In this document: positions 1 to 64,000 of the stretch, one piece after another | Layout of the letters: each line of letters starts with the position of its first letter | Numbering within the stretch: the stretch's first letter is position 1 | Assembly: GCA_951213105.1 (NCBI GenBank) | Contig: OX578142.1 | Location: 2,248,649-2,312,648 of the forward strand | DNA: 64,000 bases | Direction of reading: 5' to 3' | From: Amaurobius ferox | Taxonomy: Eukaryota; Arthropoda; Arachnida; Araneae; Amaurobiidae | Notes under the pieces: generated by a model | What the model was told of the DNA's origin: nothing | The model's input: the letters and a program-made list of their open reading frames with translations, nothing else | Databases searched by the model: none | Translations under genes and position numbers: made by a program

Positions 1-2923
1 CTTCTCCATCGAAATTAGATATAAAAAATTGTATTTGAACGAAAATTATCATGGTCGGATTTTTCACAAAATCGGTAAGGGGGGGTAGCATGAAAAAGTA
101 TAGATTTTTCGAAATTTTGAAACCTCGTTTTTTGGACATCAAACAGAAGGTATCGGCCAGAAAGCCAGGAAATCGGTCTTCTCCATCGAAATTAGATATA
201 AAAAATTGTATTTGAACGAAAATTATCATGGTCGGATTTTTCACAAAATCGGTAAGGGGGGGTAGCATGAAAAAGTATAGATTTTTCGAAATTTTGAAAC
301 CTCGTTTTTTGGACATCAAACAGAAGGTATCGGCCAGAAAGCCAGAAAATCGGTCTTCTCCATCGAAATTAGATATAAAAAATTGTATTTGAACGAAAAT
401 TATCATGGTCGGATTTTTCACAAAATCGGTAAGGGGGGGTAGCATGAAAAAGTATAAATTTTTCGAAATTTTGAAACCTCGTTTTCGGACATCAAACAGA
501 AGGTATCGGCCAGAAAGCCAGGAAATCGGTTTTCTCCATCGAAATTAGATATAAAAAATTGTATTTGAACGAAAATTATCATGGTCGGATTTTTCACAAA
601 ATCGGTAAGGGGGGGTAGCATGAAAAAGTATAGATTTTTCGAAATTTTGAAACCTCCTTTTTTGGACATCAAACAGAAGGTATCGGCCAGAAAACCAGGA
701 AATCGGTCTTCTCCATCGAAATGAGATATAAAAAATTGTATTTGAACGAAAATTATCATGGTCGGATTTTTCACAATATCGGTAAGGGGGGGTAGCATGA
801 AAAAGTATAGATTTTTCGAAATTTTGAAACCTCGTTTTTTGGACATCAAACAGAAGGTATCGGCCAGAAAGCCAGGAAATCGGTCTTCTCCATCGAAATT
901 AGATATAAAAAATTGTATTTGAACGAAAATTATCATGGTCGGATTTTTCACAAAATCGGTAAGGGGGGGTAGCACGAAAAAGTATAGATTTTTCGAAATT
1001 TTGAAACCTCGTTTTTGGACATCAAACAGAAGGTATCGGCCAGAAAGCCAGGAAATCGGTCTTCTCCATCGAAATTAGATATAAAAAATTGTATTTGAAC
1101 GAAAATTATCATGGTCGGATTTTTCACAAAATCGGTAAGGGGGGGTAGCATGAAAAAGTATAGATTTTTCGAAATTTTGAAACCTCGTTTTTTGGACATC
1201 AAACAGAAGGTATCGGCCAGAAAACCAGGAAATCGGTCTTCTCCATCGAAATGAGATATAAAAAATTGTATTTGAACGAAAATTATCATGGTCGGATTTT
1301 TCACAATATCGGTAAGGGGGGTAGCATGAAAAAGTATAGATTTTTCGAAATTTTGAAACCTCGTTTTTTGGACATCAAACAGAAGGTATCGGCCAGAAAG
1401 CCAGGAAATCGGTCTTCTCCATCGAAATTAGATTAAAAAATTGTATTTGAACGAAAATTATCATGGTCGGATTTTTCACAAAATCGGTAAGGGGGGGGGT
1501 AGCATGAAAAGTATAGATTTTTCGAAATTTTGAAACCTCGTTTTTTGGACATCAAACAGAAGGTATCGGCCAGAAAACCAGGAAATCGGTCTTCTCCATC
1601 GAAATTAGATATAAAAAATTGTATTTGAACGAAAATTATCATGGTCGGATTTTTCACAAAATCGGTAAGGGGGGGTAGCATGAAAAAGTATAGATTTTTC
1701 GAAATTTTGAAACCTCGTTTTTTGGACATCAAACAGAAGGTATCGGCCAGAAAGCCAGGAAATCGGTCTTCTCCATCGAAATTAGATATAAAAAATTGTA
1801 TTTGAACGAAAATTATCATGGTCGGATTTTTCACAAAATCGGTAAGGGGGGGTAGCATGAAAAAGTATAGATTTTTCGAAATTTTGAAACCTCGTTTTTT
1901 GGACATCAAACAGAAGGTATCGGCCAGAAAGCCAGAAAATCGGTCTTCTCCATCGAAATTAGATATAAAAAATTGTATTTGAACGAAAATTATCATGGTC
2001 GGATTTTTCACAAAATCGGTAAGGGGGGGTAGCATGAAAAAGTATAAATTTTTCGAAATTTTGAAACCTCGTTTTCGGACATCAAACAGAAGGTATCGGC
2101 CAGAAAGCCAGGAAATCGGTTTTCTCCATCGAAATTAGATATAAAAAATTGTATTTGAACGAAAATTATCATGGTCGGATTTTTCACAAAATCGGTAAGG
2201 GGGGGTAGCATGAAAAAGTATAGATTTTTCGAAATTTTGAAACCTCGTTTTTTGGACATCAAACAGAAGGTATCGGCCAGAAAACCAGGAAATCGGTCTT
2301 CTCCATCGAAATGAGATATAAAAAATTGTATTTGAACGAAAATTATCATGGTCGGATTTTTCACAAAATCGGTAAGGGGGGGTAGCATGAAAAAGTATAG
2401 ATTTTTCGAAATTTTGAAACCTCGTTTTTTGGACATCAAAGAGAAGGTATCGGCCAGAAAGCCAGGAAATCGGTCTTCTCCATCGAAATTAGATATAAAA
2501 AATTGTATTTGAACGAAAATTATCATGGTCGGATTTTTCACAAAATCGGTAAGGGGGGGTAGCATGAAAAAGTATAGATTTTTCGAAATTTTGAAACCTC
2601 GTTTTTTGGACATCAAACAGAAGGTATCGGCCAGAAAACCAGGAAATCGGTCTTCTCCATCGAAATGAGATATAAAAAATTGTATTTGAACGAAAATTAT
2701 CATGGTCGGATTTTTCACAAAATCGGTAAGGGGGGGTAGCATGAAAAAGTATAGATTTTTCGAAATTTTGAAACCACGTTTTTTGGACATCAAACAGAAG
2801 GTATCGGCCAGAAAGCTAGGAAATCGGACTTCTCCATCGAAATTAGATATAAAAAATTGTATTTGAACGAAAATTATCATGGTCGGATTTTTCACAAAAT
2901 CGGTAAGGGGGGGTAGCATGAAA
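1..2923. repeat. 177-bp satellite array S1 (about 16.5 units)
   Basis: Head-to-tail units of about 177 bp. Landmarks in each unit, in order, are 'catgaaaaagtatag', 'cctcgttttttggacatc', 'gaaggtatcggccag', 'cttctccatcgaaatt', 'ttgtatttgaacg', 'tcacaaaatcggtaag', then a G run of usually 7 and 'tagcatg'. Recurrent unit variants act as markers. K units (here near 440-540 and 2018-2130) read 'cctcgttttcggac', are 1 bp shorter and have 'ggttttctcc'. M units have 'gaaatgagatat' and often 'cacaatatcgg'. R units have 'agattaaaaaattg', also 1 bp shorter. The array is cut by the left window edge and ends on the right at element A1. The unoccupied equivalent of the short-tail insertion site lies at 2730-2746. 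Confidence 0.97.
2730..2746. other. Unoccupied target site matching the 166-bp tail insertion
   Basis: Here an M-type unit ('gaaatgagat', 'cacaaaatcgg') runs straight into a unit with 'gaaaccacg' and 'gctaggaaatcgg', across seven G and 'tagcatgaaa'. The same two units flank the 166-bp element tails at 18732-18897 and 34541-34706. This is therefore what the locus looked like before that insertion. The 17 bp at this position are the ones duplicated on either side of the tail. Confidence 0.8.
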
Positions 2924-3917
2924 GGCCCAGACCATACAGCCAACCCAGGGGTTTATGGCAGTTTAATGTATGGCCGGGAGAAAATTTAGAACAGGAAAGT
3001 TAGAACAGGAGAATTTAGAAATTTAAAAAATTTAGAACAGAAGACCGACTTCCACAGACCGACACCCACGAGCAGCCCAGAGTAAACCAGTAGTTTATTA
3101 AATAATCAATCAAAGGTTACAGTTACAAAATATTAGGTGTCACGTAGGACACAGGCAGCAGAACAGACAGGCAAACAAACAAACAACAAACCATAAAGAT
3201 ACAGCAAACAACATAAAGAACACAGCAAACAACATAAAATCACTGCAAACAACATGAAGAAGGGAGTCAGACAATTAAAAGAAATTAAACTTTCTATTAG
3301 TGTTTAAATTCAAAGGTCTTAAGTTAACGGTTTAAAACTTAATCGATCCCAAATTTTGAAATTTATAATGATACTAAATTCTCAATAAAAGAAGTGATTC
3401 CATTAAAAGTTCTATCAGATTTATATAGTTTTTAATATTTTTTTTTTATTAAGAGTAAAGATATAATTTTAGTTTATATTTACAAGCCTGGTTTCCATAA
3501 AGGATCAAACCCAAGGGTTAAATCCAGGAAAATTAAAATATTCATCACTAAAACCAGATAAAAACGTTAATTAATTAAAGAAAATATGCCAGTAAACAGT
3601 TAAAAAGTTTTAAGTTAAAGGAAGATAATTAAAAGTTTATTATTATTATTATTATTTTTTTTTTAAAAACATAACATTTACACTAAGGGTTATAAAGTGT
3701 TTTTTCACTCTCTTTTCTATTTTTTTCTTCTCTAAAACTTATCAATTATTCTAAGAATGAAACAACGGAGGTCAATTATAAGTGTAGAATTACTATTTCC
3801 GAGCAGTAAAAATATATTAATAAACAGCAAAAATCATATAAATATACAGCAAAAGTCATTAAATGGCAAAGCATTATTAAAAAGTAACACAGGACAGGTG
3901 AGAAATCTCAGAAAAGT
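2924..3917 (-). other. 3' UTR of element A1
   Basis: No ORF of note. Reading up from the element end, there is a nested terminal stem-loop (2932-2973). Next come short 'aatttagaacagg' repeats (about 2990-3050) and a hairpin GTGTC-N6-GACAC (3137-3152). Three 22-bp tandem copies containing 'gcaaacaacat' follow (about 3199-3260). The rest is AT-rich, with a T run near 3440 and a (TTA)n/T-run microsatellite near 3636-3665 whose length differs between A copies. Roughly the first 250 bp are almost identical to elements B and C; the remainder is specific to A. Confidence 0.85.
2932..2973 (-). other. Terminal nested stem-loop at the element 3' end (A1)
   Basis: CCATACA (2932-2938) pairs with TGTATGG (2967-2973), and inside that loop AACCC (2942-2946) pairs with GGGTT (2949-2953) across a 2-nt loop. 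The structure lies 8 nt from the satellite junction. It is present in all A copies, in B1 (9799-9840), B2 (25791-25832) and C (46903-46944), and in the 166-bp tails. The position suits an RNA signal recognised by the element's RT, but that role is inferred. Confidence 0.6.
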
Positions 3918-5006
3918 CTAAAGAGTTTTTTGAAGATTCTTAATACGTAAGAGTTCCCTGTGGAGGGCATGACAGTTGGCCCTGTCCCTAGCATTATGTT
4001 TTGTACACCATTGAAGAGAGGAATCTTGCAAGTTGGCTGATATACAGTTAGGACAAGACGGGGTTTTAGCATTACAGGTCTTGAAAGAGTGTTTATCAGA
4101 GGAGCACTGGCTACACTTACTGGATGGTTGACGGCAGGTGGCAGCAGAGTGACCGAATCCTTGGCAATGGTAACATATTTGCAAGGAAACATATTTCTTT
4201 ATATTGAAGTATTGGAAGTGATAGTACAGTTTTTTGATGTCTATAAGTGATTTTCCGGCGGCAACATCAGTCAAGATCACCCAATTATTGGATCCCAATT
4301 TGTTCTTAAAGGTTTTGATTATCTTAAACTCCTGTATTTCAGTATTGGAAAGGTTTTTTAAGAGCAGAGGCTTGATGTCTGCCTCAGAGATATTCACAGG
4401 AACGTTAAAAATAATAAGTGGCATTTTCCGGACAGGTGGCCTGTGTATGACAAAATTATCCGAGAGATCAGAGTTTATAAATTTAGGCAGTATGGATTCG
4501 TCATCTTCGTCACGACAAGTGATTTTAAGGGTATCTCTGCTGATGGTGGAAACATTTTGAATTTTTACGTTAAGTGGGCAGTCAGACAAATGAAGATCAT
4601 TCTTGAGTTGATCAAGAGATTTAGTTTGATCCTTTCCACGAAGCAACACACTGGCATAGGATGGTTTGTTGTGATGAGAACCAGGACGAAGTTCATTATG
4701 AAGATCCAAGTTTGTAAGGTTCTTACGGACAACGTCATCAACAAAAGCAGGAATTTCTTGGAGGTCCTGAGCAAGGCAGTTCGTAAAATTAGCGAGGTCT
4801 AATGATATGGAGTTTTTCAGCTGGTAGAGATCCTCGTGGAAAGTAGTTTTAATTTCCTGCAAAGCGTTTAAAGAATCTTGATCCGGAGGGGTGACTGTTG
4901 AAGACTGTGATTCAAAGAGATAGCAGGTTGTTTTAATCTTGTCGATTTTGCAATTCAAAAATTCTTGTTGGGTTTCAGAGGGTTTAACATGTCGAACTAG
5001 AAAACT
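3918..5006 (-). pseudogene. ORF1 (Gag) C-terminal part, 5'-truncated, copy A1
   Basis: This is the last 346 or so residues of the type A Gag, identical in sequence to the overlapping part of the complete protein at 60728-62527. It keeps the region before the zinc knuckles and all three knuckles (CX2CX4HX4C twice, then CX2CX15HX7C). The N-terminal Ser/Pro-rich part is missing. The reading frame continues into the satellite without a stop until a TAA in the first unit, but with no ATG. The first in-frame ATG is internal (Met432 of the full protein) and would give 168 residues holding only the pre-knuckle region and the knuckles. It is probably not a functional gene. Confidence 0.88.
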
Positions 5007-5019
5007 ACATGTCGAACTA

Positions 5020-7325: not shown

Positions 7326-9420
7326 GGCCCAGACCATACAGCCAACCCAGGGGTTTATGGCAGTTTAATGTATGGCCGGGAGAAAATTTAGAACAGGAAA
7401 TTTAGAACAGGAGAATTTAGAAATTTAGAAAATTTAGAACAGAAGACCGACTTCCACAGACCGACACCCACGAGCAGCCCAGAGTAAACCAGTAGTTTAT
7501 TAAATAATCAATCAAAGGTTACAGTTACAAAATATTAGGTGTCACGTAGGACACAGGCAGCAGAACAGACAGGCAAACAAACAAACAACAAACCATAAAG
7601 ATACAGCAAACAACATAAAGAACACAGCAAACAACATAAAATCACTGCAAACAACATGAAGAAGGGAGTCAGACAATTAAAAGAAATTAAACTTTCTATT
7701 AGTGTTTAAATTCAAAGGTCTTAAGTTAACGGTTTAAAACTTAATCGATCCCAAATTTTGAAATTTATAATGATACTAAATTCTCAATAAAAGAAGTGAT
7801 TCCATTAAAAGTTCTATCAGATTTATATAGTTTTTAATATTTTTTTTTATTAAGAGTAAAGATATAATTTTAGTTTATATTTACAAGCCTGGTTTCCATA
7901 AAGGATCAAACCCAAGGGTTAAATCCAGGAAAATTAAAATATTCATCACTAAAACCAGATAAAAACGTTAATTAATTAAAGAAAATATGCCAGTAAACAG
8001 TTAAAAAGTTTTAAGTTAAAGGAAGATAATTAAAAGTTTATTATTATTATTATTATTTTTTTTTTAAAAACATAACATTTACACTAAGGGTTATAAAGTG
8101 TTTTTTCACTCTCTTTTCTATTTTTTTCTTCTCTAAAACTTATCAATTATTCTAAGAATGAAACAACGGAGGTCAATTATAAGTGTAGAATTGCTATTTC
8201 CGAGCAGTAAAAATATATTAATATACAGCAAAAATCATATAAATATACAGCAAAAGTCATTAAATGGCAAAGCATTATTAAAAAGTAACACAGGACAGGT
8301 GAGAAATCTCAGAAAAGTCTAAAGAGTTTTTTGAAGATTCTTAATACGTAAGAGTTCCCTGTGGAGGGCATGACAGTTGGCCCTGTCCCTAGCATTATGT
8401 TTTGTACACCATTGAAGAGAGGAATCTTGCAAGTTGGCTGATATACAGTTAGGACAAGACGGGGTTTTAGCATTACAGGTCTTGAAAGAGTGTTTATCAG
8501 AGGAGCACTGGCTACACTTACTGGATGGTTGACGGCAGGTGGCAGCAGAGTGACCGAATCCTTGGCAATGGTAACATATTTGCAAGGAAACATATTTCTT
8601 TATATTGAAGTATTGGAAGTGATAGTACAGTTTTTTGATGTCTATAAGTGATTTTCCGGCGGCAACATCAGTCAAGATCACCCAATTATTGGATCCCAAT
8701 TTGTTCTTAAAGGTTTTGATTATCTTAAACTCCTGTATTTCAGTATTGGAAAGGTTTTTTAAGAGCAGAGGCTTGATGTCTGCCTCAGAGATATTCACAG
8801 GAACGTTAAAAATAATAAGTGGCATTTTCCGGACAGGTGGCCTGTGTATGACAAAATTATCCGAGAGATCAGAGTTTATAAATTTAGGCAGTATGGATTC
8901 GTCATCTTCGTCACGACAAGTGATTTTAAGGGTATCTCTGCTGATGGTGGAAACATTTTGAATTTTTACGTTAAGTGGGCAGTCAGACAAATGAAGATCA
9001 TTCTTGAGTTGATCAAGAGATTTAGTTTGATCCTTTCCACGAAGCAACACACTGGCATAGGATGGTTTGTTGTGATGAGAACCAGGACGAAGTTCATTAT
9101 GAAGATCCAAGTTTGTAAGGTTCTTACGGACAACGTCATCAACAAAAGCAGGAATTTCTTGGAGGTCCTGAGCAAGGCAGTTCGTAAAATTAGCGAGGTC
9201 TAATGATATGGAGTTTTTCAGCTGGTAGAGATCCTCGTGGAAAGTAGTTTTAATTTCCTGCAAAGCGTTTAAAGAATCTTGATCCGGAGGGGTGACTGTT
9301 GAAGACTGTGATTCAAAGAGATAGCAGGTTGTTTTAATCTTGTCGATTTTGCAATTCAAAAATTCTTGTTGGGTTTCAGAGGGTTTAACATGTCGAACTA
9401 GAAAACTACATGTCGAACTA
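7326..9420 (-). mobile_element. Type A retrotransposon, 5'-truncated copy A2
   Basis: Same structure and same 5' truncation as A1, 4401 bp further on, with 3' UTR 7326-8318. The 14-mer duplication is at 9388-9401 and 9408-9421. It shares with A1 and A4 an A at the site reading 'cacgacaagtg' (G in A3, A5, A6, A7), and the flanking R unit with 'gtaaatcgg'. A1 plus S2 and A2 plus its following satellite are therefore two copies of a 4.4-kb block. Confidence 0.93.
8319..9407 (-). pseudogene. ORF1 (Gag) C-terminal part, 5'-truncated, copy A2
   Basis: 346 residues identical to the A1 copy, with three intact zinc knuckles and no in-frame ATG before the pre-knuckle region. The lack of protein change points to recent amplification rather than to selection on this truncated copy. 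Confidence 0.88.
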
Positions 9421-9790: not shown

Positions 9791-10013
9791 GGCCCAGACC
9801 ATACAGCCAACCCAGGGGTTTATGGCAGTTTAATGTATGGCCGGGAGAAAATTTAGAACAGGAGAATTTAGAAATTTAGAAAATTTAGAACAGGAGAATT
9901 TAGAAAATTTAGAACAGGAGACCGACTTCCACAGACCGACACCCTCGAGCAGCCCAGAGTAAACCAGTAGTTTATTAAATAATCAATCAAAGGTTACAGT
10001 TACAAAGTGTTAG

Positions 10014-10215
10014 GTGTCACGTAGGACACAGGCAGCAGAACAGACAGGCAAGCAAACAGACAACAAACCACAAAGATAAAAGTACAAAACGTGTCACATA
10101 AGACACAAACAGCAAAACGTTTCACGTAGGACACAGACAGCAAGAAAAACAGCAAGCAAACGGCACAAAACGTGTCACATAAGACACAAACAGCAAAACG
10201 TGTCACGTAGGACAC
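10014..10215 (-). repeat. Five-copy hairpin array in the B1 3' UTR
   Basis: Five copies of a 16-nt inverted repeat with a 6-nt loop, at 10014-10029, 10091-10106, 10119-10134, 10172-10187 and 10200-10215. Four have a perfect 5-bp stem (GTGTC/GACAC); the third has GTTTC. Loops alternate between ACGTAG and ACATAA on the plus strand. C has five equivalents (47108-47306) and A has one. Confidence 0.75.
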
Positions 10216-10347
10216 AGACACAGGAATAACAGCAGCAAACGACAAAAACAAATATAACATAAAACAAGTCATCTTCAAATTTCAAAAATTTAAAAACTAT
10301 TCAAATATTTAATTTCAATAAGTATTTGAAATCAAAATAATTCAGAT

Positions 10348-10407
10348 GGCCGGAAGTCAGCCGGACCGGCTAAGAGTCAACCAGAACGGTCGGAAGTCAG
10401 CCAAACC
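10348..10407. repeat. Three tandem 20-bp GC-rich units in the B1 3' UTR
   Basis: Units at 10348-10367, 10368-10387 and 10388-10407 share the frame 'GG-C-G-A-GTCA-CC'. The first and third contain 'cggaagtcagcc' and the second 'taagagtcaacc'. They stand out in an AT-rich region and are absent from A and C. The B2 copy is at 26340-26399. Function unknown. Confidence 0.7.
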
Positions 10408-10506
10408 CCAGGAGCAAGGACAATACGACATCAAAGCACAACATCAAAACACAAGAATAACACAATAACACAATAGTAGATCTTAAACTGTAAATGTGAA
10501 AGATGG

Positions 10507-12453
10507 CTAAGACTGTAAGTTTTGAAGGTTTTTAGTTCGTAAAAGTTCCCCTTGGAAACAGACACACTTAGACAGGTCCCTAGAATTGTGATCAGTAGGT
10601 AAGTTCAGAGTTTTGTCTTTATCATTAGCCAAGGAACAATTGATGCACTTGAGCATAACACTTTTACAGTTTTTAAAGGAGTGATCGTGAGCGGAGCACT
10701 GACTGCAATTGCTGTGGGCCCGTCTGCACGTAGTAGAAGAGTGCCCAAACCCCTGGCACCGGAAACAGATTTGAACAGAAATGTACTTTTTGATAGCAAA
10801 GTAGATGAAGTGGTGAAAAACCCTCTTGAGTTCGATCAATGTATCGCCTGAAGATGCATCAACCAAAATGATCCAGTTCAGGTTACCGTACTTATTCTTA
10901 AAAGTTCTGACAGTTTTAAACTCTTGTAGATTGTTAGAAGGTAAGTTATTCTCGAGAAGATTCCGAATGTGATCCTCCTTGTAGGAAGCAGGCACATTGA
11001 AGAGAATAAGAGCAAGTTTTTTGGTTGGAGTTTTGTGAACTGAAAAGTTCTTGGTGATCTCAGGGTTTTGAAATTTAGGAATAAGAGTGTCCACGCTCTC
11101 CTCACGACAGGTAACCTTAAGGGAACCCTTCCCAAAGGAAGAGACACTGTGAACACGGACAGACGGCGGGCAGGTAGACGACAGCAGGTCACTCTTGAGC
11201 TGTATGTTGCTTTTTTGACGATCATTTCCATGCAGCAAAATACTGGCGTAAGATGGAACAGGAGTGAGAGGAGAGTTCACAGCAGGAGTCTGCTGCAGAG
11301 AAGAGATATTTCTCTGAACAGCATCGTCAATCGCAACAGAGAGATCTTGAGAAAGATTTTTTGTAAATTTGTTTAAGTCTTGAATGATAGATGTTTTGAG
11401 TAAAGAAATTTCCTCCCCGAAAGCTGTTTTAATTTCTTGGGTGGAAGCATCAATGTCTGCCCGTTGATCGGAGAGCTGGGTTTCAAAGGAGGTACATGCC
11501 AAGTGGTTGGATTCAAATTTTGTGTCCAGGTATTTTTTCTGAGTAGAATTAGTTTTGATATGTCGAGAAATATAACCTTTGATCGAATTGGTGAAGTGAC
11601 GGATTTTTAGAAGAAAAATGTTACGATAATCACTACCCTCCTCTGGAAGAGTAGACATAGACACTGAGTCAGTATCTCTCAGATCTTCGATAGAACCAGT
11701 AAAGTCAGAAGTAGCTGGAGTAACTGGCAGAAGGTCAGGAGGCTCCATGGGGACGGCAGCCTGAGCGGAAGAGTGAGAGGCACAAGTCACCACCGGAGTC
11801 GCAGAAGGCACCACAGGGAGAGCTGCAGAAGTGTCCAGTGGAACAGTAGTATCCAAGGGAGCAGTATCCACAGGAGTAACAGGAGAATCAGTCAGAGGCA
11901 GAGCAGGAGGAGGAGAAGGTCGGAACAAGGCAGCAGGGACAGGAATAACGATGGGAACTGGGTTACAAGGAGAAGACAGAGGTCCAGCAGGAACCGGTGA
12001 AGATGACGGAGCCGGACGGGAAGAAGCAGCAGGAGGCTTTGAAAAAACCGTGAAGCGAGGCGACGACCCGTGAAGCAGGACATCAAGAGCAGCTCGCCGA
12101 GCCTGACTGGACAGCACAGGCGACGACGACGGAGGCGAAGAGCGAGCAGCAACACTGGAGTAGGATGGAGAAGATGAATAGGTGATATCAGTTCTTTTCA
12201 GTCGGACTGATGGTTGAAGTTGAGCAGATAAGAAGGGGTTAAATGTTTGTGGAGACGAGCCACAGGGCAATGCAGTGAAAGAAGTAACTGAAGATAATGG
12301 AGGATAGTCAGTATCCAACGATCTAAAGTTAGGTGAAGGAAAGCCATCATCACTAGCAGAGTGACCGGAAGTGTGATTCCTCGGCGCAGAGGGAGAAGAT
12401 TCCCCGTCATAAACACCACGTGATCGGGGGGGAAAGTTCGTATCAGAGTTCAT
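10507..12453 (-). CDS. Type B ORF1 / Gag-like nucleic-acid-binding protein, 648 aa
   Basis: ORF1 of a non-LTR retrotransposon, expected to coat the element RNA and form the particle. Residues 1 to about 260 are low-complexity and rich in Ser and Pro. A central region follows with motifs shared with type A Gag ('SRHIK', 'TQKKYL', 'PSYASILLHG'). Residues of about 450-560 resemble the domain that precedes the knuckles in jockey/R1-type Gags. Knuckles: C563-C566-H571-C576 and C583-C586-H591-C596 (both CX2CX4HX4C), and C603-C606-H622-C630 (CX2CX15HX7C). The ATG at 12453 has A at -3 and is followed by an unbroken frame. No RT follows; the stop is 716 bp from the element end. It differs from the B2 copy by one residue (Asn here, Ile there, from base 11507). 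Divergence from type A is strong outside the C-terminal half. Confidence 0.9.
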   Translation of the reverse strand: MNSDTNFPPRSRGVYDGESSPSAPRNHTSGHSASDDGFPSPNFRSLDTDYPPLSSVTSFTALPCGSSPQTFNPFLSAQLQPSVRLKRTDITYSSSPSYSSVAARSSPPSSSPVLSSQARRAALDVLLHGSSPRFTVFSKPPAASSRPAPSSSPVPAGPLSSPCNPVPIVIPVPAALFRPSPPPALPLTDSPVTPVDTAPLDTTVPLDTSAALPVVPSATPVVTCASHSSAQAAVPMEPPDLLPVTPATSDFTGSIEDLRDTDSVSMSTLPEEGSDYRNIFLLKIRHFTNSIKGYISRHIKTNSTQKKYLDTKFESNHLACTSFETQLSDQRADIDASTQEIKTAFGEEISLLKTSIIQDLNKFTKNLSQDLSVAIDDAVQRNISSLQQTPAVNSPLTPVPSYASILLHGNDRQKSNIQLKSDLLSSTCPPSVRVHSVSSFGKGSLKVTCREESVDTLIPKFQNPEITKNFSVHKTPTKKLALILFNVPASYKEDHIRNLLENNLPSNNLQEFKTVRTFKNKYGNLNWIILVDASSGDTLIELKRVFHHFIYFAIKKYISVQICFRCQGFGHSSTTCRRAHSNCSQCSAHDHSFKNCKSVMLKCINCSLANDKDKTLNLPTDHNSRDLSKCVCFQGELLRTKNLQNLQS

Positions 12454-13772
12454 TTTATAAATTCAAGAGTTCAGAAGTACATGAAGTGTAAATGGTAAAG
12501 AAAGGCAAATCAATATTTTCCTAAAATATGCGATATTTTATACAATTAAATACATAATTATACACAAGAAAACAGTAGAACCCGAAAAAAGCCGAACCAG
12601 AGGAAGAAACAAGGAGGAAAAAGGAGAGGAAGGTGAGCGAGAGCGAGCAGAGACAAGCAAAGGGGACGAAAAGTAAAAACAAAGAACCAGGGAAAAAAAA
12701 CCGGAGCGAAAGCGCAAGAGGGAGAGGAAGGAGAGCAGAAAAGGAAAAGTTAAGAAGAGAACAGGAAGAGTAAAGAAGAAGAACCTTCAGAAAAATAAAA
12801 AAAGGAGCTAGAGCTTAGAAAAAAATATTACAGTATGAAGAAGGCAAACCAAGAGGATACACCGAAGGGAAAGTCTCTGAATCAATTAGAAAAAACTTTG
12901 GTGTTGCCACCAACCAAAACCTGAACCAGCAAGGCGAGGCACAGCAGAAGGAAAACAGGAGGAGAGGAAGGTAAACCATCTCTAAATGTCGAAGGAAAAT
13001 GATATCTGGCAAAATTAAAAAAATAATAAGAAACAAGGATCCACTAAGGAAAGAAGTAAAAGTATGACATGGAACCAGGCCGGAAATGAAAATATCTAAA
13101 TTCAAAAGAGAAGATAAACTGAAGAAGAGGATATTACGTGCAAAGCAAGGGAAGGAAGTCACGATATAAAGCAATGGATACGAAACCCGAAAGGAAACGA
13201 AAAAGTGCAAGAACCGGAAAGAGTTCAAAAGGAAGAAGAAGAAGAAGAAGCCAGAGGGAAGAAGAGGAGAAGTCAGAAAAACAGAGCGGGAAAGGGAAAG
13301 ACCATTCAACAGAGGGGGGAACCGTAGAATACCATTACACAATGAAAATGCTCAAAACAGAAGTAAAAGTGACATTTCAAAAATGCAATTTACACTAATA
13401 TATAATGCTCCTGGGGGGAAGGCAGTTTAAAATTAACATAGTAAACATGTTGATTAAACTTAATATATACTTTAAAAAATGAAAAGATAATGATAATATA
13501 AAGTTTTACAGATGTATAAAAGGCACTATTTGGGCCTTTCACTATATTTCCGCCATTACAATTGATATCCAATACTGTAGAATATTTACAAAATAAAAGT
13601 TAATTTATCTCACCAAATAGAAGACGTAGCGAAAACGCAATGGCATATAAAAGAAGCTGAGGCGAAGGGCTTTAAAAAGATACAACACTCGAGGCAAAAC
13701 TCAAAGATTTACACAGGTTTAAGAAGCAAAAACTGGAGTGTTTTAAAACAGCGTGCTACCAATGTCAAAACG
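12454..13772 (-). promoter_or_regulatory. 5' UTR and presumed internal promoter of element B1
   Basis: About 1.3 kb upstream of Gag on the minus strand, with no convincing ORF. The part next to Gag is strongly purine-rich on the plus strand (about 12590-12780 and 13140-13330). The distal part is AT-rich and includes an inverted repeat AAAGGC/GCCTTT (13519-13539). Several segments match the 5' UTR of A7, for example 'accgaaggga', 'aaactttggtgttgcca', 'acagatgtataaa' and 'tctcaccaaata'. Non-LTR elements normally start transcription at their first base from an internal promoter, so one is expected near 13772. I cannot identify the promoter elements themselves. Confidence 0.55.
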
Positions 13773-18731: not shown

Positions 18732-18897
18732 GGCCCAGACCATACAGCCAACCCAGGGGTTTCTGGCAGTTTAATGTATGGCCGGGAGAAAATTTAGAAC
18801 AGGAAATTTAGAACAGGAGAATTTAGAAATTTAGAAAATTTAGAACAGAAGACCGACTTCCACAGACCGACACCCACGAGCAGCCCAGAGTAAACCA
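18732..18897 (-). mobile_element. 166-bp 3' tail of an A/B/C-type element, first copy
   Basis: A severely 5'-truncated insertion with only the shared 3' end: the terminal stem-loop and 'aatttagaacagg' repeats, stopping at 'gagtaaaccag'. Seven G plus 'tagcatgaaa' flank it on both sides (18715-18731 and 18898-18914), giving a 17-bp target duplication. The unoccupied site is at 2730-2746. It has 'tttctggcag' where full elements have 'tttatggcag'. The parent type cannot be told because A, B and C are nearly identical here. Confidence 0.88.
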
Positions 18898-25782: not shown

Positions 25783-26005
25783 GGCCCAGACCATACAGCC
25801 AACCCAGGGGTTTATGGCAGTTTAATGTATGGCCGGGAGAAAATTTAGAACAGGAGAATTTAGAAATTTAGAAAATTTAGAACAGGAGAATTTAGAAAAT
25901 TTAGAACAGGAGACCGACTTCCACAGACCGACACCCTCGAGCAGCCCAGAGTAAACCAGTAGTTTATTAAATAATCAATCAAAGGTTACAGTTACAAAGT
26001 GTTAG

Positions 26006-46894: not shown

Positions 46895-47491
46895 GGCCCA
46901 GACCATACAGCCAACCCAGGGGTTTATGGCAGTTTAATGTATGGCCGGGAGAAAATTTAGAACAGGAAATTTAGAACAGGAGAATTTAGAAATTTAGAAA
47001 ATTTAGAACAGGAGACCGACTTCCACAGACCGATACCCACGAGCAGCCCAAAGTAAACCAGTAGTTTATTAAATAATTAATCAAAGGTTACAGTTACAAA
47101 ATGTTAGGTGTCACGTAGGACACAGGCAGCAGAACAGACAGGCAAGCAAACAAACAAACCACAAAGATAAAAGTACAAAACGTGTCACATAAGACACAAA
47201 CAGTAAAACGTTTCACGTAGGACACACACAGCAAGAAAAACAGCAAGCAAACGGCACAAAACGTGTCACAAAAGACACAAACAGCAAAACGTGTCACGTA
47301 GGATACAGACACAGGAATAACAGCAGCAAACGGCAAAAACAAAAAGTCACACACACATAAAAAAAATACAATAAACAGGGAAGTATGCAAGGAATATGCA
47401 AGCAGAGCATTCAAAAGGGGTGCCAAGGGAACAGTAAAGAGCTCCACTGATCAAAAATTAAAAGCAGAAGGGACGCCGGCTCACGGGCAGG
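46895..47491 (-). other. 3' UTR of element C
   Basis: It holds the terminal nested stem-loop (46903-46944), 'aatttagaacagg' repeats, and five hairpins of the GTGTC-N6-GACAC type between 47108 and 47306. Two of the hairpins have one mismatch (GTTTC near 47210, GATAC near 47302). Sequence similar to B ends near 47340. After that a C-specific stretch of about 150 bp runs to the pol stop. Confidence 0.8.
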
Positions 47492-50400: not shown

Positions 50401-51016
50401 GGTCACTTAATGTGTCACACGAGAGAACTTCCCAATTTTGAATAGAGTCAAAAAAGCTGAAAGAAGAAAGGGACAGGTCAGGGAATCCCCTGCCTGAGTG
50501 CGAGGCGAATGTTGGTCCACATTTCGGGTCGTTCAGAATAATCAAGTTGTTTTCAAGGCAAAAATCAATAGTGGATGTACCCCTACGATCAGTGAAGCCA
50601 TAACCCCACATCTGAGCATGGGCGTTGAAATCACCAAGGATGAGAAAGTTTGTATTAAAGAGGTCAAGGGTGGAAAATTCGTCAATAAGGTTGGAAATTT
50701 CAGAGTGCGGGGGGAAGTAAAGGGAAGCAACATTAAGGGTTTTATTATCAGGAAGGGAAATTTCAATTACGATAATTGAGAGAGATTGGAATTTTAAGGA
50801 GGCGGAAAGATTCGAATTTAGAACAAGTATGACCGCCTTAGAGGAGAGGGAAGAAAACTGGGAAAATGTAGAGGGGGGACGGAGAATACCGTCCTTCGAA
50901 ACATAAGGTTCCTGTAAGCATATTAGGTCTATTGAGTTGTCGAGAGAAAATTGCAGTAAGTTGCTGTGAGCAGTTAAAGAGTGGTTAGAATTAAATTGGA
51001 TGAACTTAAGAACCAT
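47492..51016 (-). CDS. Type C ORF2: endonuclease / reverse transcriptase / RNase H polyprotein, 1174 aa
   Basis: An intact LINE-type pol with no stop or frameshift. The APE-like endonuclease spans residues 1 to about 215, with 'QFNSN' (7-11), E36 in 'LQEPY', D129 in 'GDFNAH', D180 in 'FPDLS', and D205-H206 in 'LSDH'. The RT is about 430-760, with 'YRPICLLP' near 499-506, catalytic D569 in 'VDISGAFDN', 'GAPQGSVISP' (624-633) and D658-D659 in 'FADD'. The RNase H is about 898-1030, with D905 ('YTDGS'), E943, D966, H1006 and D1016 all present. A zinc-knuckle-like motif lies at C1110-C1113-H1121-C1126. Domain order and motifs fit the R1/I group of non-LTR elements; the exact clade needs an RT tree. 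The ATG at 51016 lies 95 bp after the ORF1 stop. The endonuclease would nick the satellite target and the RT would prime there. It could act on C, A and B RNAs alike, given the shared 3' end. Confidence 0.95.
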   Translation of the reverse strand: MVLKFIQFNSNHSLTAHSNLLQFSLDNSIDLICLQEPYVSKDGILRPPSTFSQFSSLSSKAVILVLNSNLSASLKFQSLSIIVIEISLPDNKTLNVASLYFPPHSEISNLIDEFSTLDLFNTNFLILGDFNAHAQMWGYGFTDRRGTSTIDFCLENNLIILNDPKCGPTFASHSGRGFPDLSLSSFSFFDSIQNWEVLSCDTLSDHKYILLTLNTAPSIDTSFFFKTNYSLGKFLHNFKPLSEEFNTSLDSVLDSAMLDVFIKDFILKTQNCAFKYIRKKKASKNFNFSWWSRDLAKFRNFVNALYKRIGSHERNSDPPELINQAKIKYKLNRAKYKLLINKAKSDAWKKHCNNCSEKFGSLFKYTFQKHKNFNNINLQFQDNPNLDYNDKIQRLLDHCFPEDPSFTSFPTHDTSDEGLGAVSDEELSLVFNHLKSGKAPGQDNLDFNIWKNLFKSYPLLFSKIINLIFKFCKFPDSLKNAKILFIQKPDKNPASCSAYRPICLLPTFGKIIERIFINKLNIWLKTAGALHPLQFGFRELHSCEDAAHALVTHIKSLRSANIVALATVDISGAFDNLDWKVLPSTFDKISLPPHFRTFIYSYLHSRTITFTNKNFSLTKIISKGAPQGSVISPVLWNIYFNNLLNLNNDLYYLQAFADDLAVVSYSTSIRSVVNNINDALSLITSSLTSLNLTVSVEKSSCIIFNRSLKKRRYYPPVKLLNKTIKITRSLKFLGIIIDDNLKWSSHIFYLKEKCFKLFSTFGKISSNNWGVNKVLLKSWYLAVIEKIITYGAGIWGGHLTGVQISKLTSLQRLFLLKISTGFRTSSNISLFSITGIPPLHCVIKTQFLKYHFWKQKNNFFPDSSLPPPARFDTNCALSGLSPGLRSIIFSPRNPVTFSDFNIYTDGSKIEDKVGFAICVFKDDSLIETFLYKLDNENTVFQAELAALREAFSWAINNNTKVNIFSDSLSAILALNSPNIKSKFLNDIKTYIYPFKSLFNLQWVKAHANIRGNEVADENAKLATTVGSPTVVPLPYSFLTNHCKTYLLNIWQTLLNNYISPRTHDPARILTYLPKVSQNFQIYNKYLIYFLTGHGPFLDYLHHFKIKRTSCCTCSAYGDVDHYVFSCPHTSAHHLIKPTPAHCATWFSGVRKNPILLNKLKNCVLIAREISNGIS

Positions 51017-51111
51017 CCGAAGGCGATTTCAATCCAGTGCACAGTGTGGGGGAAAAACAGAGAAACAAATTTAAAATAATATAAGTAAAACAAAATATAC
51101 AAGATGTGAGT

Positions 51112-51225
51112 CTATTGCTCACTTTGGAGTTTTTTGATGCGGTCAATTTCACGGCGAAAAGCCTTGCAATTGTTTTTGTCATGCACTGAATGGCGATAGT
51201 TCCAGTTAAGGGTTTCACCATTGTC
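51112..51225 (-). pseudogene. Remnant of type C ORF1 (Gag C-terminus, 37 codons)
   Basis: Minus-strand codons before a TAG at 51112-51114 encode a tail with 'LNW', 'H' then seven residues then 'C', 'RREIDRIKKLQ' and the stop. It aligns without gaps over 31 residues with the type A Gag end ('LQW', HX7C, 'HRELLRIKNLQ'), and I count 14 identities. The HX7C spacing of the third knuckle is kept. This shows that C once had its own Gag, different from A and B, and that the copy lost its 5' part when it inserted. Confidence 0.85.
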
Positions 51226-59738: not shown

Positions 59739-60727
59739 GGCCCAGACCATACAGCCAACCCAGGGGTTTATGGCAGTTTAATGTATGGCCGGGAGAAAAT
59801 TTAGAACAGGAAATTTAGAACAGGAGAATTTAGAAATTTAGAAAATTTAGAACAGAAGACCGACTTCCACAGACCGACACCCACGAGCAGCCCAGAGTAA
59901 ACCAGCAGTTTATTAAATAATCAATCAAAGGTTACAGTTACAAAATATTAGGTGTCACGTAGGACACAGGCAGCAGAACAGACAGGCAAACAAACAAACA
60001 ACAAACCATAAAGATACAGCAAACAACATAAAGAACACAGCAAACAACATAAAATCACTGCAAACAACATGAAGAAGGGAGTCAGACAATTAAAAGAAAT
60101 TAAACTTTCTATTAGTGTTTAAATTCAAAGGTCTTAAGTTAACGGTTTAAAACTTAATCGATCCCAAATTTTGAAATTTATAATGATACTAAATTCTCAA
60201 TAAAAGAAGTGATTCCATTAAAAGTTCTATCAGATTTATATAGTTTTTCATATATTTTTTTTTTATTAAGAGTAAAGATATAATTTTAGTTTATATTTAC
60301 AAGCCTGGTTTCCATAAAGGATCATACCCAAGGGTTAAATCCAGGAAAATTAAAATATTCATCACTAAAACCAGATAAAAACGTTAATTAATTAAAGAAA
60401 ATATGCCAGTAAACAGTTAAAAAGTTTTAAGTTAAAGGAAGATAATTAAAAGTTTATTATTATTATTTTTTTTTAAAACATAACATTTACACTAAGGGTT
60501 ATAAAGTGTTTTTTCACTCTCTTTTCTATTTTTTTTCTTCTCTAAAACTTATCAATTATTCTAAGGATGAAACAACGAAGGTCAATTATGAGTGTAGAAT
60601 TACTAGTTCCGAGCAGTAAAAATATATTAATATACAGCAAAAATCATATAAATATACAGCAAAAGTCATTAAATGGCAAAGCATAATTAAAAAGTAACAC
60701 AGGACAGGTGAGAAATCTCAGAAAAGT
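59739..60727 (-). other. 3' UTR of element A7
   Basis: Same plan as the A1 3' UTR: terminal stem-loop (59747-59788), 'aatttagaacagg' repeats, one GTGTC/GACAC hairpin and the 22-bp triplicate. It carries substitutions not seen in the truncated copies ('accagcagttt', 'tttttcatatatt', 'ggatcataccc'). Its (TTA)n tract near 60457 is shorter. Confidence 0.82.
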
Positions 60728-62506
60728 CTAAAGAGTTTTTTGAAGATTCTTAATACGTAAGAGTTCCCTGTGGAGGGCATGACAGTTGGCCCTGTCCCTA
60801 GCATTATGTTTTGTACACCATTGAAGAGAGGAATCTTGCAAGTTGGCTGATATACAGTTAGGACAAGACGGGGTTTTAGCATTACAGGTCTTGAAAGAGT
60901 GTTTATCAGAGGAGCACTGGCTACACTTACTGGATGGTTGACGGCAGGTGGCAGCAGAGTGACCGAATCCTTGGCAATGGTAACATATTTGCAAGGAAAC
61001 ATATTTCTTTATATTGAAGTATTGGAAGTGATAGTACAGTTTTTTGATGTCTATAAGTGATTTTCCGGCGGCAACATCAGTCAAGATCACCCAATTATTG
61101 GATCCCAATTTGTTCTTAAAGGTTTTGATTATCTTAAACTCCTGTATTTCAGTATTGGAAAGGTTTTTTAAGAGCAGAGGCTTGATGTCTGCCTCAGAGA
61201 TATTCACAGGAACGTTAAAAATAATAAGTGGCATTTTCCGGACAGGTGGCCTGTGTATGACAAAATTATCCGAGAGATCAGAGTTTATAAATTTAGGCAG
61301 TATGGATTCGTCATCTTCGTCACGGCAAGTGATTTTAAGGGTATCTCTGCTGATGGTGGAAACATTTTGAATTTTTACGTTAAGTGGGCAGTCAGACAAA
61401 TGAAGATCATTCTTGAGTTGATCAAGAGATTTAGTTTGATCCTTTCCACGGAGCAACACACTGGCATAGGATGGTTTGTTGTGATGAGAACCAGGACGAA
61501 GTTCATTATGAAGATCCAAGTTTGTAAGGTTCTTACGGACAACGTCATCAACAAAAGCAGGAATTTCTTGGAGGTCCTGAGCAAGGCAGTTCGTAAAATT
61601 AGCGAGGTCTAATGATATGGAGTTTTTCAGCTGGTAGAGATCCTCGTGGAAAGTAGTTTTAATTTCCTGCAAAGCGTTTAAAGAATCTTGATCCGGAGGG
61701 GTGACTGTTGAAGACTGTGATTCAAAGAGATAGCAGGTTGTTTTAATCTTGTCGATTTTGCAATTCAAAAATTCTTGTTGGGTTTCAGAGGGTTTAACAT
61801 GTCGAACTAGAAAACTTTGAATTTGGTTGCAAGTTCTAAGAATTTTTTGATAGAAGGTGTAGCTATGACCACCCTCGAGGTCTTCAGTATCCGAGGAGGT
61901 AAAAGGATTGGTATCAATCTGATCTTCAGGAAGATCAGAGAAGGTATTGTTCTGAGCTTGTTCGGGTACAGCTGGAGGGATGGTGAGAAGAGAAGGCAGG
62001 ACAGGTGGAAGTAAAGGTACCGGAGGCGGAGGAGAAGGACAGGAAGCATCAACAGGAGGAGGTGGTCGAACAACAGAGAGATCAAGAGCAGGATCAGAAG
62101 ATGTAGAAGGAGATGTCACCGGCTGGTCAGCAAGGCGATGTGAAGAAAGTCTACTGGAGTATAATGAAGTAAAACGTTCAAGTCTCTTTTTGTACGAAGA
62201 AGTGGAAACAGATTCAGTATTGTCAAATTTCAGAGAGGATTCGTTTTCATGACGACCAGAGTATGATGGTGAGTCACGATCGGAGGATAGATTATCACAG
62301 CGACCAGAGTATGAAGGTGAGTCACGATGAGAGGATAGAATATCATAGTATTTTTTGCCATGGTGTTGAGATGTATCACGATTGTATTTCAGCCTTTCGG
62401 AGTAACGTCTGTTGGTGCACAAAGGTTTAGCATGATCAAATGTCACCGGAGGAATAGATGGAAAGTCAAGCACTGAAATAAATTCACTGGGTATTTCTTT
62501 GTCCAT
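60728..62506 (-). CDS. Type A ORF1 / Gag-like nucleic-acid-binding protein, complete
   Basis: The frame is open for 599 codons from 62527, but the ATG at 62506 (Met8) has the better context (ACC before, G after) and is chosen, giving 592 residues. Numbering below is for the 599-codon frame. Residues of about 65-95 hold a doubled 'SPSYSGR' motif. About 150-190 is Pro-rich. About 255-420 aligns with the centre of type B ('VRHVK', 'TQQEFL', 'PSYASVLLRG'). About 420-510 is the pre-knuckle region. Knuckles: C515-C518-H523-C528, C535-C538-H543-C548, and C555-C558-H574-C582, with the same spacings as type B. The truncated copies keep residues from about 254 on. The role is RNA binding and particle formation, inferred from the family. 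No pol follows. Confidence 0.9.
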   Translation of the reverse strand: MDKEIPSEFISVLDFPSIPPVTFDHAKPLCTNRRYSERLKYNRDTSQHHGKKYYDILSSHRDSPSYSGRCDNLSSDRDSPSYSGRHENESSLKFDNTESVSTSSYKKRLERFTSLYSSRLSSHRLADQPVTSPSTSSDPALDLSVVRPPPPVDASCPSPPPPVPLLPPVLPSLLTIPPAVPEQAQNNTFSDLPEDQIDTNPFTSSDTEDLEGGHSYTFYQKILRTCNQIQSFLVRHVKPSETQQEFLNCKIDKIKTTCYLFESQSSTVTPPDQDSLNALQEIKTTFHEDLYQLKNSISLDLANFTNCLAQDLQEIPAFVDDVVRKNLTNLDLHNELRPGSHHNKPSYASVLLRGKDQTKSLDQLKNDLHLSDCPLNVKIQNVSTISRDTLKITCRDEDDESILPKFINSDLSDNFVIHRPPVRKMPLIIFNVPVNISEADIKPLLLKNLSNTEIQEFKIIKTFKNKLGSNNWVILTDVAAGKSLIDIKKLYYHFQYFNIKKYVSLQICYHCQGFGHSAATCRQPSSKCSQCSSDKHSFKTCNAKTPSCPNCISANLQDSSLQWCTKHNARDRANCHALHRELLRIKNLQKTL

Positions 62507-64000
62507 GGTGATGATGTACAATAACAATTTTAATTACAAGAAAGGTTTAATTTCGTTCAAAAATATCAATTTTACAAATTATGTGAAAAATTCAGAACAA
62601 ATCACCGAAAAAATTTTTTTCCAAAAAAGAGATGTTGAGCAGAGGCGAGCACAGGGGGCACGAAGGGGTCGGAAAGTAAGATCCAAACAAGGAGGAGAAA
62701 AAACCAGGCGAAAAACTGTAAAAGGGAAGGAGGGAGAGCGAAAAGAGAGAAGTTAAGGTGAAAAGGGGAAAAGAAGAAGAACGTTGCCACAAAAGATAAT
62801 CCAATAGCACGAAGCCAGAGCTTAGTAAAAAATATTTAGAACGGAGGAAGGCAAACGGGCTCTATGTACCGAAGGGAAAAGGTATAAGTGTATAAAAAGA
62901 AACTTTGGTGTTGCCACTAAAATAAATCCAAAATAATGAAACCAGTCAGTTCAGATTTAAAGGGGAGGAAGAGGGAGGCAAATGGACTCCAAGTACCGAA
63001 GGAAAAAGGAATCAAATAAGATTAAAAATTTAAAAAAAAATTTTGAGATTTTTTCAAAATTTAATAAGGTGAAAAGTAAGTATAAGTGTATAATCCGAAA
63101 CCAAATAGGAAAGAATAAAACAAGAAGCCTGAACGAATCAAAAGTGAAGAAGAGGACCGGGGTAAAAAAATCCAATAGGGAAACCAAAGTAAAAATACAA
63201 TGCCTGAAATCAGGTAGGAAGGGAAAATATCAAAAAAGTGAAATGTGTTCAAAAGGAAGAAGAGGAAAGCGGAGCAAACGAGCCAAGCAGGGAGAAGTCC
63301 ATTAACACAAAAGAGGGGGAACCGTAGAAACAACGTCTACACGGAACAGGCAGAATGCCAAAAAAGGGGGGAGGCCAGAAACAGAACAAAAATCTTCAAA
63401 AGAGACATTTCTTAAAACACTGATTACATAATAAACAATGCATATGAGTGAAAAACACTTTTCAATTATCAAAGATAAAACTTTAAATTAGTTAAATATG
63501 TAGTTTATATAAACATCAATCAATATAAACAGTGAATTTAATAGATGTATATTCAGTCAATTTGATCCGTTTCCTAATCAATCTCCACTATAAAGCCAGA
63601 ACCAGAAGTAAATATTTGCAAAAGAGACATTTTTAAATCTTGGAATACATATAAATAAATCACTTGGAAGTCAAGAATACTTTTAAAAAATCAAAAACAA
63701 AACTTCAGAAAAGCTAAATATGTAAATTACATGAACTTTTAATAATAAATACAGTGTTTTTAACAGATGTATAAACGGTCAAATATGACCATTTTGAAGC
63801 AATCTCCATAACAATTGTATAAGCAGGAACAATAGAATGTTTATAAAATTAAAATTGAGATTTCTCACCAAATAAACATCGTAGAGACAAATCAATGATA
63901 TCAAATTAAAGCTGGGATGAGGGACAACAAAAAATATGCAGACGTAAAAAGCAGAAAGCAGGATTCACGCCTCCAAGGCAGGAAAATGACGGAGGTCGAA
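62507..64000 (-). promoter_or_regulatory. 5' UTR and presumed internal promoter region of A7
   Basis: No credible gene. Next to Gag it is purine-rich on the plus strand (about 62620-62760 and 63110-63370). 'gtaccgaagg' occurs twice (near 62867 and 62991). The distal part is AT-rich and contains two tandem copies of a 221-228-bp monomer and the start of a third. Many segments match the B 5' UTR at low identity. The window ends before the element's 5' end. Confidence 0.55.
63374..63822 (-). repeat. Tandem monomers in the A7 5' UTR
   Basis: Monomer 1 is 63374-63594 and monomer 2 is 63595-63822; a third starts at 63823. Shared landmarks in order are 'gccagaa-cagaa', 'caaaagagacattt', 'taaatatgta', 'cagatgtata' or 'tagatgtata', and 'caatctcca'. 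Monomer 2 has an inverted repeat GGTCA/TGACC (63777-63790) where B has AAAGGC/GCCTTT. B appears to have a single equivalent (about 13355-13590). The copies are clearly diverged. Confidence 0.68.

What the first reader, a model, noticed from the sequence alone, without database searches (positions are those of the whole stretch)
1..64000. Retrotransposons that insert at one fixed base of a 177-bp satellite
All twelve element 3' junctions in the window fall at the same position of the satellite unit, after 'tagcatgaaa', in the same orientation. They represent at least five separate insertion events: A-truncated, A7, B, C and the 166-bp tail. Flanking duplications are seen for A1, B, C and the tail, and unoccupied sites for B, C and the tail. 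Target-specific non-LTR elements are known for rDNA (R1, R2) and for telomeric repeats (TRAS, SART). I know of no described family aimed at this satellite.
Basis: partly seen in the sequence, partly recalled or inferred. Interest (0 to 1): 0.9.

Follow-up and report, generated by a model that had tools for sequence, protein, structure and literature searches.

The report
Retrotransposon subfamily homing to a satellite
In this 3.56-billion-base genome, one branch of a widely scattered retrotransposon family has most of its mapped copies in a 177-bp satellite, at one base of the unit wherever we read it, and its stray copies often sit at satellite-like sites, likely because its RNA tail matches the satellite, so target specificity may be caught here as it arises.

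Summary
All 12 3' junctions in the window, and 11 more in three further array samples, lie at TAGCATGAAA|GGCCC in one orientation; ten 5' ends are distinct, six with their own 12-16-bp duplication. The boundary is misplaced by about four bases: dispersed copies show that GAAA is usually element tail, so the likely nick is TAGCAT^GAAA.

The 18-nt 3' end occurs 1434 times; 812 copies lack the satellite flank. Of 85 loci read on C1 and C2, none is satellite and 71 are sister subfamilies, often ~54 bp long, at TGT^GTAA sites. C is a LINE with ORF1 and ORF2; A and B look gag-only and share its 3' end. Likely mechanism: endonuclease preference plus annealing of a satellite-matching RNA tail. A new variant of target-specific LINEs.

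The parts
1..2923 (+). 177-bp satellite array (first satellite stretch of the window)
   Evidence: TRF period 177, 97% matches; segmentation
2914..2923 (+). Target and tail: TAGCAT (target, inferred nick after 2919) then GAAA (probably element-coded tail, TTTC on the element strand)
   Evidence: the nick is inferred from dispersed duplications
2924..5018 (-). Element A, 5'-truncated; 14-bp duplication AGGGGGGGTAGCAT ends 2919 and restarts at 5019
   Evidence: same junction 12x, only C7:2236573-2383049
7326..9419 (-). Element A, 5'-truncated (amplified copy)
   Evidence: 99.8% identical to 2924 copy
9791..13772 (-). Element B, gag-only; duplication at most 5 bp
10507..12453 (-). ORF1 (gag-like) of B, 648 aa, two CCHC knuckles by pattern; no ORF2 match in the element
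18732..18896 (-). 165-bp 3' tail copy with 14-bp duplication
19091..21186 (-). Element A, 5'-truncated (amplified copy)
23318..25411 (-). Element A, 5'-truncated (amplified copy)
25783..29764 (-). Element B (amplified copy, 99.9%)
26499..28445 (-). ORF1 (gag-like) of second B copy, 648 aa
34541..34705 (-). 165-bp 3' tail copy (amplified, 100%)
34900..36994 (-). Element A, 5'-truncated (amplified copy)
40382..42478 (-). Element A, 5'-truncated (amplified copy)
46895..51225 (-). Element C, 5'-truncated just upstream of ORF2; 13-bp duplication GGGGGGGTAGCAT
   Evidence: this 5' junction occurs once in the genome as an exact 27-mer
47492..51016 (-). ORF2 of C, 1174 aa: APE-type endonuclease, reverse transcriptase, RNase H
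   Evidence: Pfam PF14529, PF00078, PF00075
46895..46948 (-). 3'-terminal 54-nt hairpin (CCGGCCAUACA paired with UGUAUGGUC-U-GG); 50 of 74 dispersed copies with a duplication are about this length
   Evidence: shuffle z only -1.5
59739..64000 (-). Long copy of A, runs off the window
60728..62527 (-). ORF1 (gag-like) of A, 599 aa, two CCHC knuckles by pattern; no ORF2 match in the 4262 bp seen

Best explanation
A, B and C are one subfamily of a dispersed LINE family, with most mapped copies in a 177-bp satellite and at one base of its unit in every sample read, and they likely home there because the C endonuclease prefers a TAGCAT^G-like site and the RNA tail, which matches the satellite, would anneal to the nicked strand and prime reverse transcription. 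Shown: fixed position and orientation in 23 of 23 sampled copies; many separate insertions; 3 of 100 listed A and of 100 listed C copies elsewhere; tails that go with body type; satellite-like flanks of stray copies; a dispersed full-length C copy with ORF1, ORF2 and a 14-bp duplication; A and B with ORF1 but no ORF2 found, sharing 278-462 bp of 3' end with C. Inferred: the enzyme steps (C protein nicks, and copies A and B in trans), and that the RNA reads a few bases into the satellite flank (UUUC-AUGCUA), so that a primer ending TAGC or GCAT pairs with it. Array amplification then multiplies copies.
For: 23 of 23 junctions at one base and strand in 89 kb of array; ten distinct 5' ends, six with 12-16-bp duplications. 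Subfamily probes: A 97/100 and C 97/100 listed copies in satellite-bearing stretches; B 39/49. The dispersed family uses TGT^GTAA with duplications of modal length 14 (64 sites). Dispersed subfamily copies have satellite-like flanks: by full diagnostic body, ATGAAA or longer in 7/10 against 2/71 others (Fisher 1e-6), GCATGAAA or longer in 3/10 against 0/71 (p 0.0014); with three shorter copies admitted, 10/13 and 6/13. In L005, L060 and L077, ATGAAA was added after a target ending AGC that itself lacks ATGAAA: the RNA supplied UUUCAU and the primer matches the next satellite bases. Tail type follows body type (TAAA in 14/15 GAGYG bodies, 5/49 others, p=3e-9), so tails are templated. Exact TAGCATGAAA sites seem about as common outside the satellite (41,044 in all, 6.6 per Mb in the first 15 Mb of C1), yet 95 of 100 listed occupied ones are in the C3 and C7 arrays.
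Against: The read-through RNA is not seen; an endonuclease preferring TAGCAT^G would give most of the same flanks, and only three copies separate the two, one of which (L005) is too short to class surely. If the four short copies are counted against the subfamily, the GCATGAAA test falls to 3/10 against 4/75 (p 0.03). One copy of another subfamily (L029) also shows ATGAAA, after TGT. By the general family matrix the best site in the unit is TTTTGT^GAAAAA on the other strand, empty in every sample: the matrix does not predict the choice. B and the 684-, 927- and 107-bp copies lack a normal duplication. Array counts are inflated by amplification. Stray copies exist (C1, C3, C4, C15, C19 and others). 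The 3' hairpin is only modestly better than shuffles (z -1.5).
Confidence: 0.7

Rival explanations
1. Endonuclease motif alone: the family has a short target motif, the satellite happens to carry one good match per unit, and satellite insertions are no more than that times array size.
For: Dispersed copies prefer TGT^GTAA; TAGCAT^GAAAAA ranks 2nd of 354 positions in the unit.
Against: Positions scoring as well occur about once per 145 strand-positions in the fetched C1 and C2 DNA (that DNA includes the occupied sites), so motif density cannot explain 97 of 100 listed A and C copies in the arrays. The top-ranked satellite position is empty in all four samples. An estimated half of all exact TAGCATGAAA sites lie outside the satellite, yet only 5 of 100 listed occupied ones do.
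Confidence: 0.14
2. One or a few insertions followed only by array amplification, recombination and gene conversion; the fixed site is inherited, not chosen repeatedly.
For: Within the window, copies of a kind are 99.4-100% identical; the A-truncated junction is confined to 147 kb. A copy outside the satellite was also amplified in another tandem repeat (12 places at C2:200.18-200.21 Mb). Four of the ten 5' ends have no normal duplication.
Against: A, B and C differ beyond their 3' 278-462 bp; six distinct 5' ends each have their own 12-16-bp duplication; the C junction is unique in the genome; arrays on C3 and C7 hold different truncations.
Confidence: 0.09
3. Retention: insertions fall widely but survive only in satellite heterochromatin.
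For: Not directly tested.
Against: Sister subfamilies with the same 3' end persist in ordinary DNA (812 ends without the satellite flank; 71 of 85 read are sister subfamilies), and retention does not explain one base and one orientation.
Confidence: 0.05

Closest known systems
Telomere- and rDNA-specific LINEs of the R1 clade (SART1, TRAS1, R1)
   Same: APE-type endonuclease LINE with CCHC gag (recalled for these families), fixed base and orientation in a tandem repeat, tail matching the target. In SART1Bm, repeat-like bases in the RNA are proposed to anneal to the target, and R1Bm is said to need downstream target sequence for accurate reverse transcription (passages of PMC7265360). TRAS1 endonuclease (1wdu, E 2e-4) is the only solved-structure match covering the ORF2 endonuclease domain.
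   Different: Target is a 177-bp satellite, not telomere or rRNA gene; no poly(A) tail; specificity leaks (3 of 100 listed A and C copies); close sister subfamilies are dispersed. Clade membership was not tested with a tree.
YURE (sea squirt)
   Same: A LINE said to show relatively weak specificity to U2-derived satellites (passage of PMC4640811), so satellite association of a LINE has precedent.
   Different: That paper places YURE among NeSL-related families, whose endonuclease is restriction-like; here it is APE-type. Whether this satellite derives from U2 was not tested.
Stringent-type LINEs with 3' stem-loop (ZfL2, UnaL2)
   Same: 3' terminal hairpin shared by autonomous and dependent elements; the abstract of PMC4176376 reports ORF2 recognising its cognate stem-loop. 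UnaL2 is recalled, not read.
   Different: Recognition was not tested here, and the element ends in TTTC or TTTA rather than a repeat tail (repeat tails are recalled).
HeT-A and HAL1 (gag-only LINEs)
   Same: Intact ORF1, no ORF2, own 3' UTR, dependent on another element's reverse transcriptase (recalled from the literature).
   Different: A and B share their last 278-462 bp with C; their gags are 41% identical to each other and 33% to the C gag.
Dispersed relatives of site-specific LINEs (R2NS)
   Same: Target-specific and non-specific relatives within one lineage (passages of PMC5035012; abstract of PMC7650587).
   Different: There specificity was lost; here a dispersed parent appears to have gained it. 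The direction is an inference from numbers, not a tree.

Membership tests
Non-LTR retrotransposon (LINE) using target-primed reverse transcription | APE endonuclease, reverse transcriptase | tested here: met
   PF14529, PF00078 and PF00075 in the 1174-aa ORF2
Non-LTR retrotransposon (LINE) using target-primed reverse transcription | Variable 5' truncation, fixed 3' end, short target-site duplication | tested here: met
   74 of 85 distinct dispersed loci show a duplication by script (a few matched array repeats instead); 64 clear short copies have modal length 14
Target-specific LINE (R1/R2/TRAS-like behaviour) | Most copies at one base of a repeated target | tested here: met
   For A, B, C: 97 of 100 listed, 39 of 49, 97 of 100 listed copies in satellite-bearing stretches; 23 of 23 at one base in samples
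Target-specific LINE (R1/R2/TRAS-like behaviour) | Whole family restricted to that target | tested here: not met
   812 of 1434 exact 3' ends lack the satellite flank
Target-specific LINE (R1/R2/TRAS-like behaviour) | Endonuclease nicks the target specifically | not testable with these tools
   needs biochemistry
R1 clade | Reverse transcriptase phylogeny | not tested
   No named reference set; only a weak TRAS1 endonuclease match
Gag-only dependent LINE (HeT-A/HAL1-like) | Intact ORF1, no ORF2 | tested here: met
   ORF1 599 and 648 aa; no tblastn match of C ORF2 in A or B at 1e-3. The A copy's 5' end was not seen, and Pfam named neither ORF1
Gag-only dependent LINE (HeT-A/HAL1-like) | Mobilised in trans by another element | not testable with these tools
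   Inferred from the shared 3' end and target

The most novel reading that the evidence does not exclude
Target specificity is written in the RNA tail: a subfamily that landed in the satellite began to transcribe a few satellite bases past its end, and base pairing of that borrowed tail with nicked satellite DNA now sends it, and two gag-only hitchhikers, back to the same base. The genome thus holds both the dispersed parent and the newly homing offspring, a step-by-step record of how a LINE becomes site-specific.
Probability: 0.33. Interest if true: 0.82.

Novelty: new variant of a known kind. Interest (0 to 1): 0.62.

Why it matters
How site-specific LINEs gain their target is, as far as I know, an open question, because specific families are usually compared across distant hosts. 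Here a dispersed family (TGT^GTAA) and a satellite-homing subfamily (TAGCAT^G) with the same 3' end live in one genome and differ in tail and target, and the window's C copy has an open ORF2. That makes the roles of endonuclease and RNA tail separable by swapping tails or endonucleases. It also suggests a route by which a satellite array collects autonomous and gag-only elements and amplifies them.

Tried and rejected
Motif-only explanation: the family matrix ranks another satellite site first, and that site is empty in the samples. Pure amplification: disfavoured by distinct junctions and duplications. Covariation of the 3' hairpin: the loci were chosen by an exact 3' arm, so the test was nearly uninformative; a few variant arms still pair. 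Clade by homology: 49 matches, almost none named. Pfam found nothing in the A and B ORF1s; CCHC motifs were found by pattern. My duplication script gave lengths over 100 bp for nine loci; on reading, five of these (L017, L020, L057, L067, L075) look like short copies near repeats, and L086 is an array match. Apart from YURE, the ten literature searches listed no LINE that I recognised as aimed at a complex satellite; most listed papers I saw only as titles and opening lines.

Not obtained: a whole-genome table of the 20 bp beside each hit; a count of the counter-site GATTTTGTGAAA|GGCCC (not completed); flanks of the eight dispersed subfamily copies on C3-C5 and of the B copies on C5, C22, C51, C211 and C262; ORF2 copy number (not completed).
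Full report
WHAT IS THERE. The window is C7:2248649-2312648 of a 3.56-Gb assembly in 276 contigs. It is a 177-bp satellite interrupted by 12 stretches of other sequence. Each begins, on the + strand, GGCCCAGACCATACAGCC after TAGCATGAAA. The coding strand is the - strand, so this is the elements' 3' end. A (2.1 kb truncated, or at least 4.3 kb) and B (4.0 kb) carry an ORF1 of 599 or 648 aa (only the 3' part of it in the truncated A copies) with two CCHC knuckles, and no tblastn trace of ORF2. C (4.3 kb) carries an open 1174-aa ORF2 with APE-type endonuclease, reverse transcriptase and RNase H. A shares its last 278-288 bp with B and C; B shares its last 462 bp with C.

FIXED SITE. In the window and three further array samples (L090 C7:1-10000, L091 C3:1739701-1746700, L092 C3:1772701-1780900; 89.2 kb in all), 23 of 23 exact 3' ends lie at the same base and strand, among 266 TAGCATGAAA sites. 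Ten 5' ends are distinct. Six (A-truncated, C, the 165-bp tail, a 59-bp copy, a 1773-bp C-type copy and a full-length C-type copy) have their own 12-16-bp duplication; B has 5 bp at most, and the 684-, 927- and 107-bp copies have no normal one. Three more copies run off the fetched sequence. Copies within a kind look like array duplicates; the A-truncated junction occurs 12 times within 147 kb and the C junction once in the genome, both as exact probes.

THE FAMILY IS NOT SATELLITE-BOUND. The exact 3' end occurs 1434 times; 622 copies follow TAGCATGAAA. Of the first 100 listed places I read 98 in this set (one was cut off; the one on C3 lies in the array read later as L091): 98 junctions, 85 distinct left flanks, all on C1 and C2. 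None of the 85 flanks, nor any of the 88 loci, matches the satellite. Of the 85, 74 show a duplication by script, and 50 of these 74 copies are 53-60 bp long, mostly ending at the 5' foot of a 3'-terminal hairpin (z -1.5 only). The duplications show that the 3-6 bases before GGCCC (AAA, GAAA, TAAA, GGAA, ATGAAA) are usually not target but element tail. From 64 clear short copies the empty target reads TGT^GTAA with modal duplication 14. The tail goes with the body: TAAA in 14 of 15 GAGYG bodies against 5 of 49 others, so it is templated.

THE WINDOW'S SUBFAMILY HOMES. A 45-nt diagnostic 3' end occurs 634 times; of 100 listed, 16 lie singly on C1-C5 and the other 84 in the C3 and C7 arrays. A-specific DNA: 118 copies, 100 listed, 97 in stretches that hold the satellite; one flank each read on C13, C78 and C169 is satellite. 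One of the two C15 strays and the C19 stray read TTTGGGGGTATGCATGAAA and GAAGAGGGTAGCATGAAA, both close to the satellite's GGGGGTAGCATGAAA. B-specific: 49 copies, 39 on C7, C13 and C169, 2 single (C5, C22), and 8 on C51, C211 and C262, whose flanks I did not read. C-specific: 212 copies, 100 listed, 97 in the C3 and C7 arrays and 3 single. On C7 I read the satellite at 0-10 kb and in the window only; the arrays between are inferred. On C1, a dispersed C copy is full length (about 7.8 kb, ORF1 692 aa, ORF2 with a frame break, 99.6% identical to the window's C) with a 14-bp duplication ATGCATATTATATT, beside an apparently empty paralogous site; its target is GCAT^G and its tail GAAA.

WHY THE SATELLITE. 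I compared left flanks with the satellite's GGGGGGGTAGCATGAAA. Among copies with the full diagnostic body, 7 of 10 match for 6 or more bases against 2 of 71 others (p 1e-6) and 3 of 10 for 8 or more against 0 of 71 (p 0.0014). Four copies are too short to class; counted with the others they give 6 of 75 (p 3e-5) and 4 of 75 (p 0.03). With three of them admitted to the subfamily the figures are 10 of 13 and 6 of 13. In L005, L060 and L077 the target ends AGC and continues G, yet ATGAAA was added: the RNA must have supplied UUUCAU, and a primer ending TAGC or AGC would pair with the next satellite bases GCUA. One copy of another subfamily (L029) also shows ATGAAA, after TGT. I infer read-through of a few satellite bases and annealing, as proposed for SART1 and R1 (passages of PMC7265360). 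Endonuclease preference for TAGCAT^G is needed too and cannot be separated from annealing by these data. Exact TAGCATGAAA occurs 41,044 times (reversed-letter control 7,004) and the empty satellite 19-mer 19,526 times. The first 100 places span 15 Mb of C1, 6.6 per Mb, so an estimated half of such sites are outside the satellite. Of the first 100 listed occupied sites, 5 are single places on C1, C2 and C5 and 95 are in the C3 and C7 arrays. Motif density alone therefore fails, as it does by matrix score (about one position in 145 scores as well in the fetched C1 and C2 DNA; that sample includes the occupied sites).

AGAINST. The reading of annealing rests on three copies. The general matrix ranks an empty site on the other strand first, and its genome-wide count did not complete. 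All counts use exact probes and are lower bounds; lists show the first 100 places only. Amplification inflates array numbers. The organism and the reverse transcriptase clade are not known.

LITERATURE. Seen as passages: PMC4640811, PMC2868851, PMC5035012, PMC7265360. Seen as abstract and outline: PMC4176376, PMC7650587, PMC7265360. Other papers only as search listings. HeT-A, HAL1 and UnaL2 features are recalled.

VERDICT. Observation confirmed with a four-base correction; interpretation partly supported: not a satellite-specific family, but a satellite-homing subfamily, with two apparently gag-only partners, of a dispersed one.

Noticed in passing
L001-L088 (C1 and C2), e.g. L012, L046, L058: Of 74 dispersed copies with a duplication, 50 are only 53-60 bp long, mostly ending at the foot of the 3' hairpin: reverse transcription seems to stop once the hairpin is copied.
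   Followed up: partly
L014, L020, L023, L057, L067 and others: A second hairpin-ended repeat (CCAGACCGTCCGACC...TTTGGACGGCC with a TTG-repeat tail), 23 hits in 297 kb of fetched loci, often beside copies of the first family.
   Followed up: no
L015, L043, L036, L019, L003: Copies sit at or near the centre of inverted duplications of their flanks (255-nt arms in L015 and 50 nt in L043 by script; L036, L019 and L003 by eye only): fold-back synthesis or an assembly artefact.
   Followed up: partly
C2:200175853-200206111 (L086-L088): One short copy of the family has been amplified with another tandem repeat: 12 listed places, 11 read with the same flank.
   Followed up: no
L089 about 440-456: The dispersed full-length C copy has a run of 12 C between its duplication and its 5' end, like the C7 run of the satellite; it may carry satellite bases at the 5' end too.
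   Followed up: no
C7:1-2.9 Mb and C13:148.5-149.2 Mb (contig ends): The satellite-linked copies cluster at the start of C7 and near the end of C13, so the arrays may be centromeric or subtelomeric.
   Followed up: no
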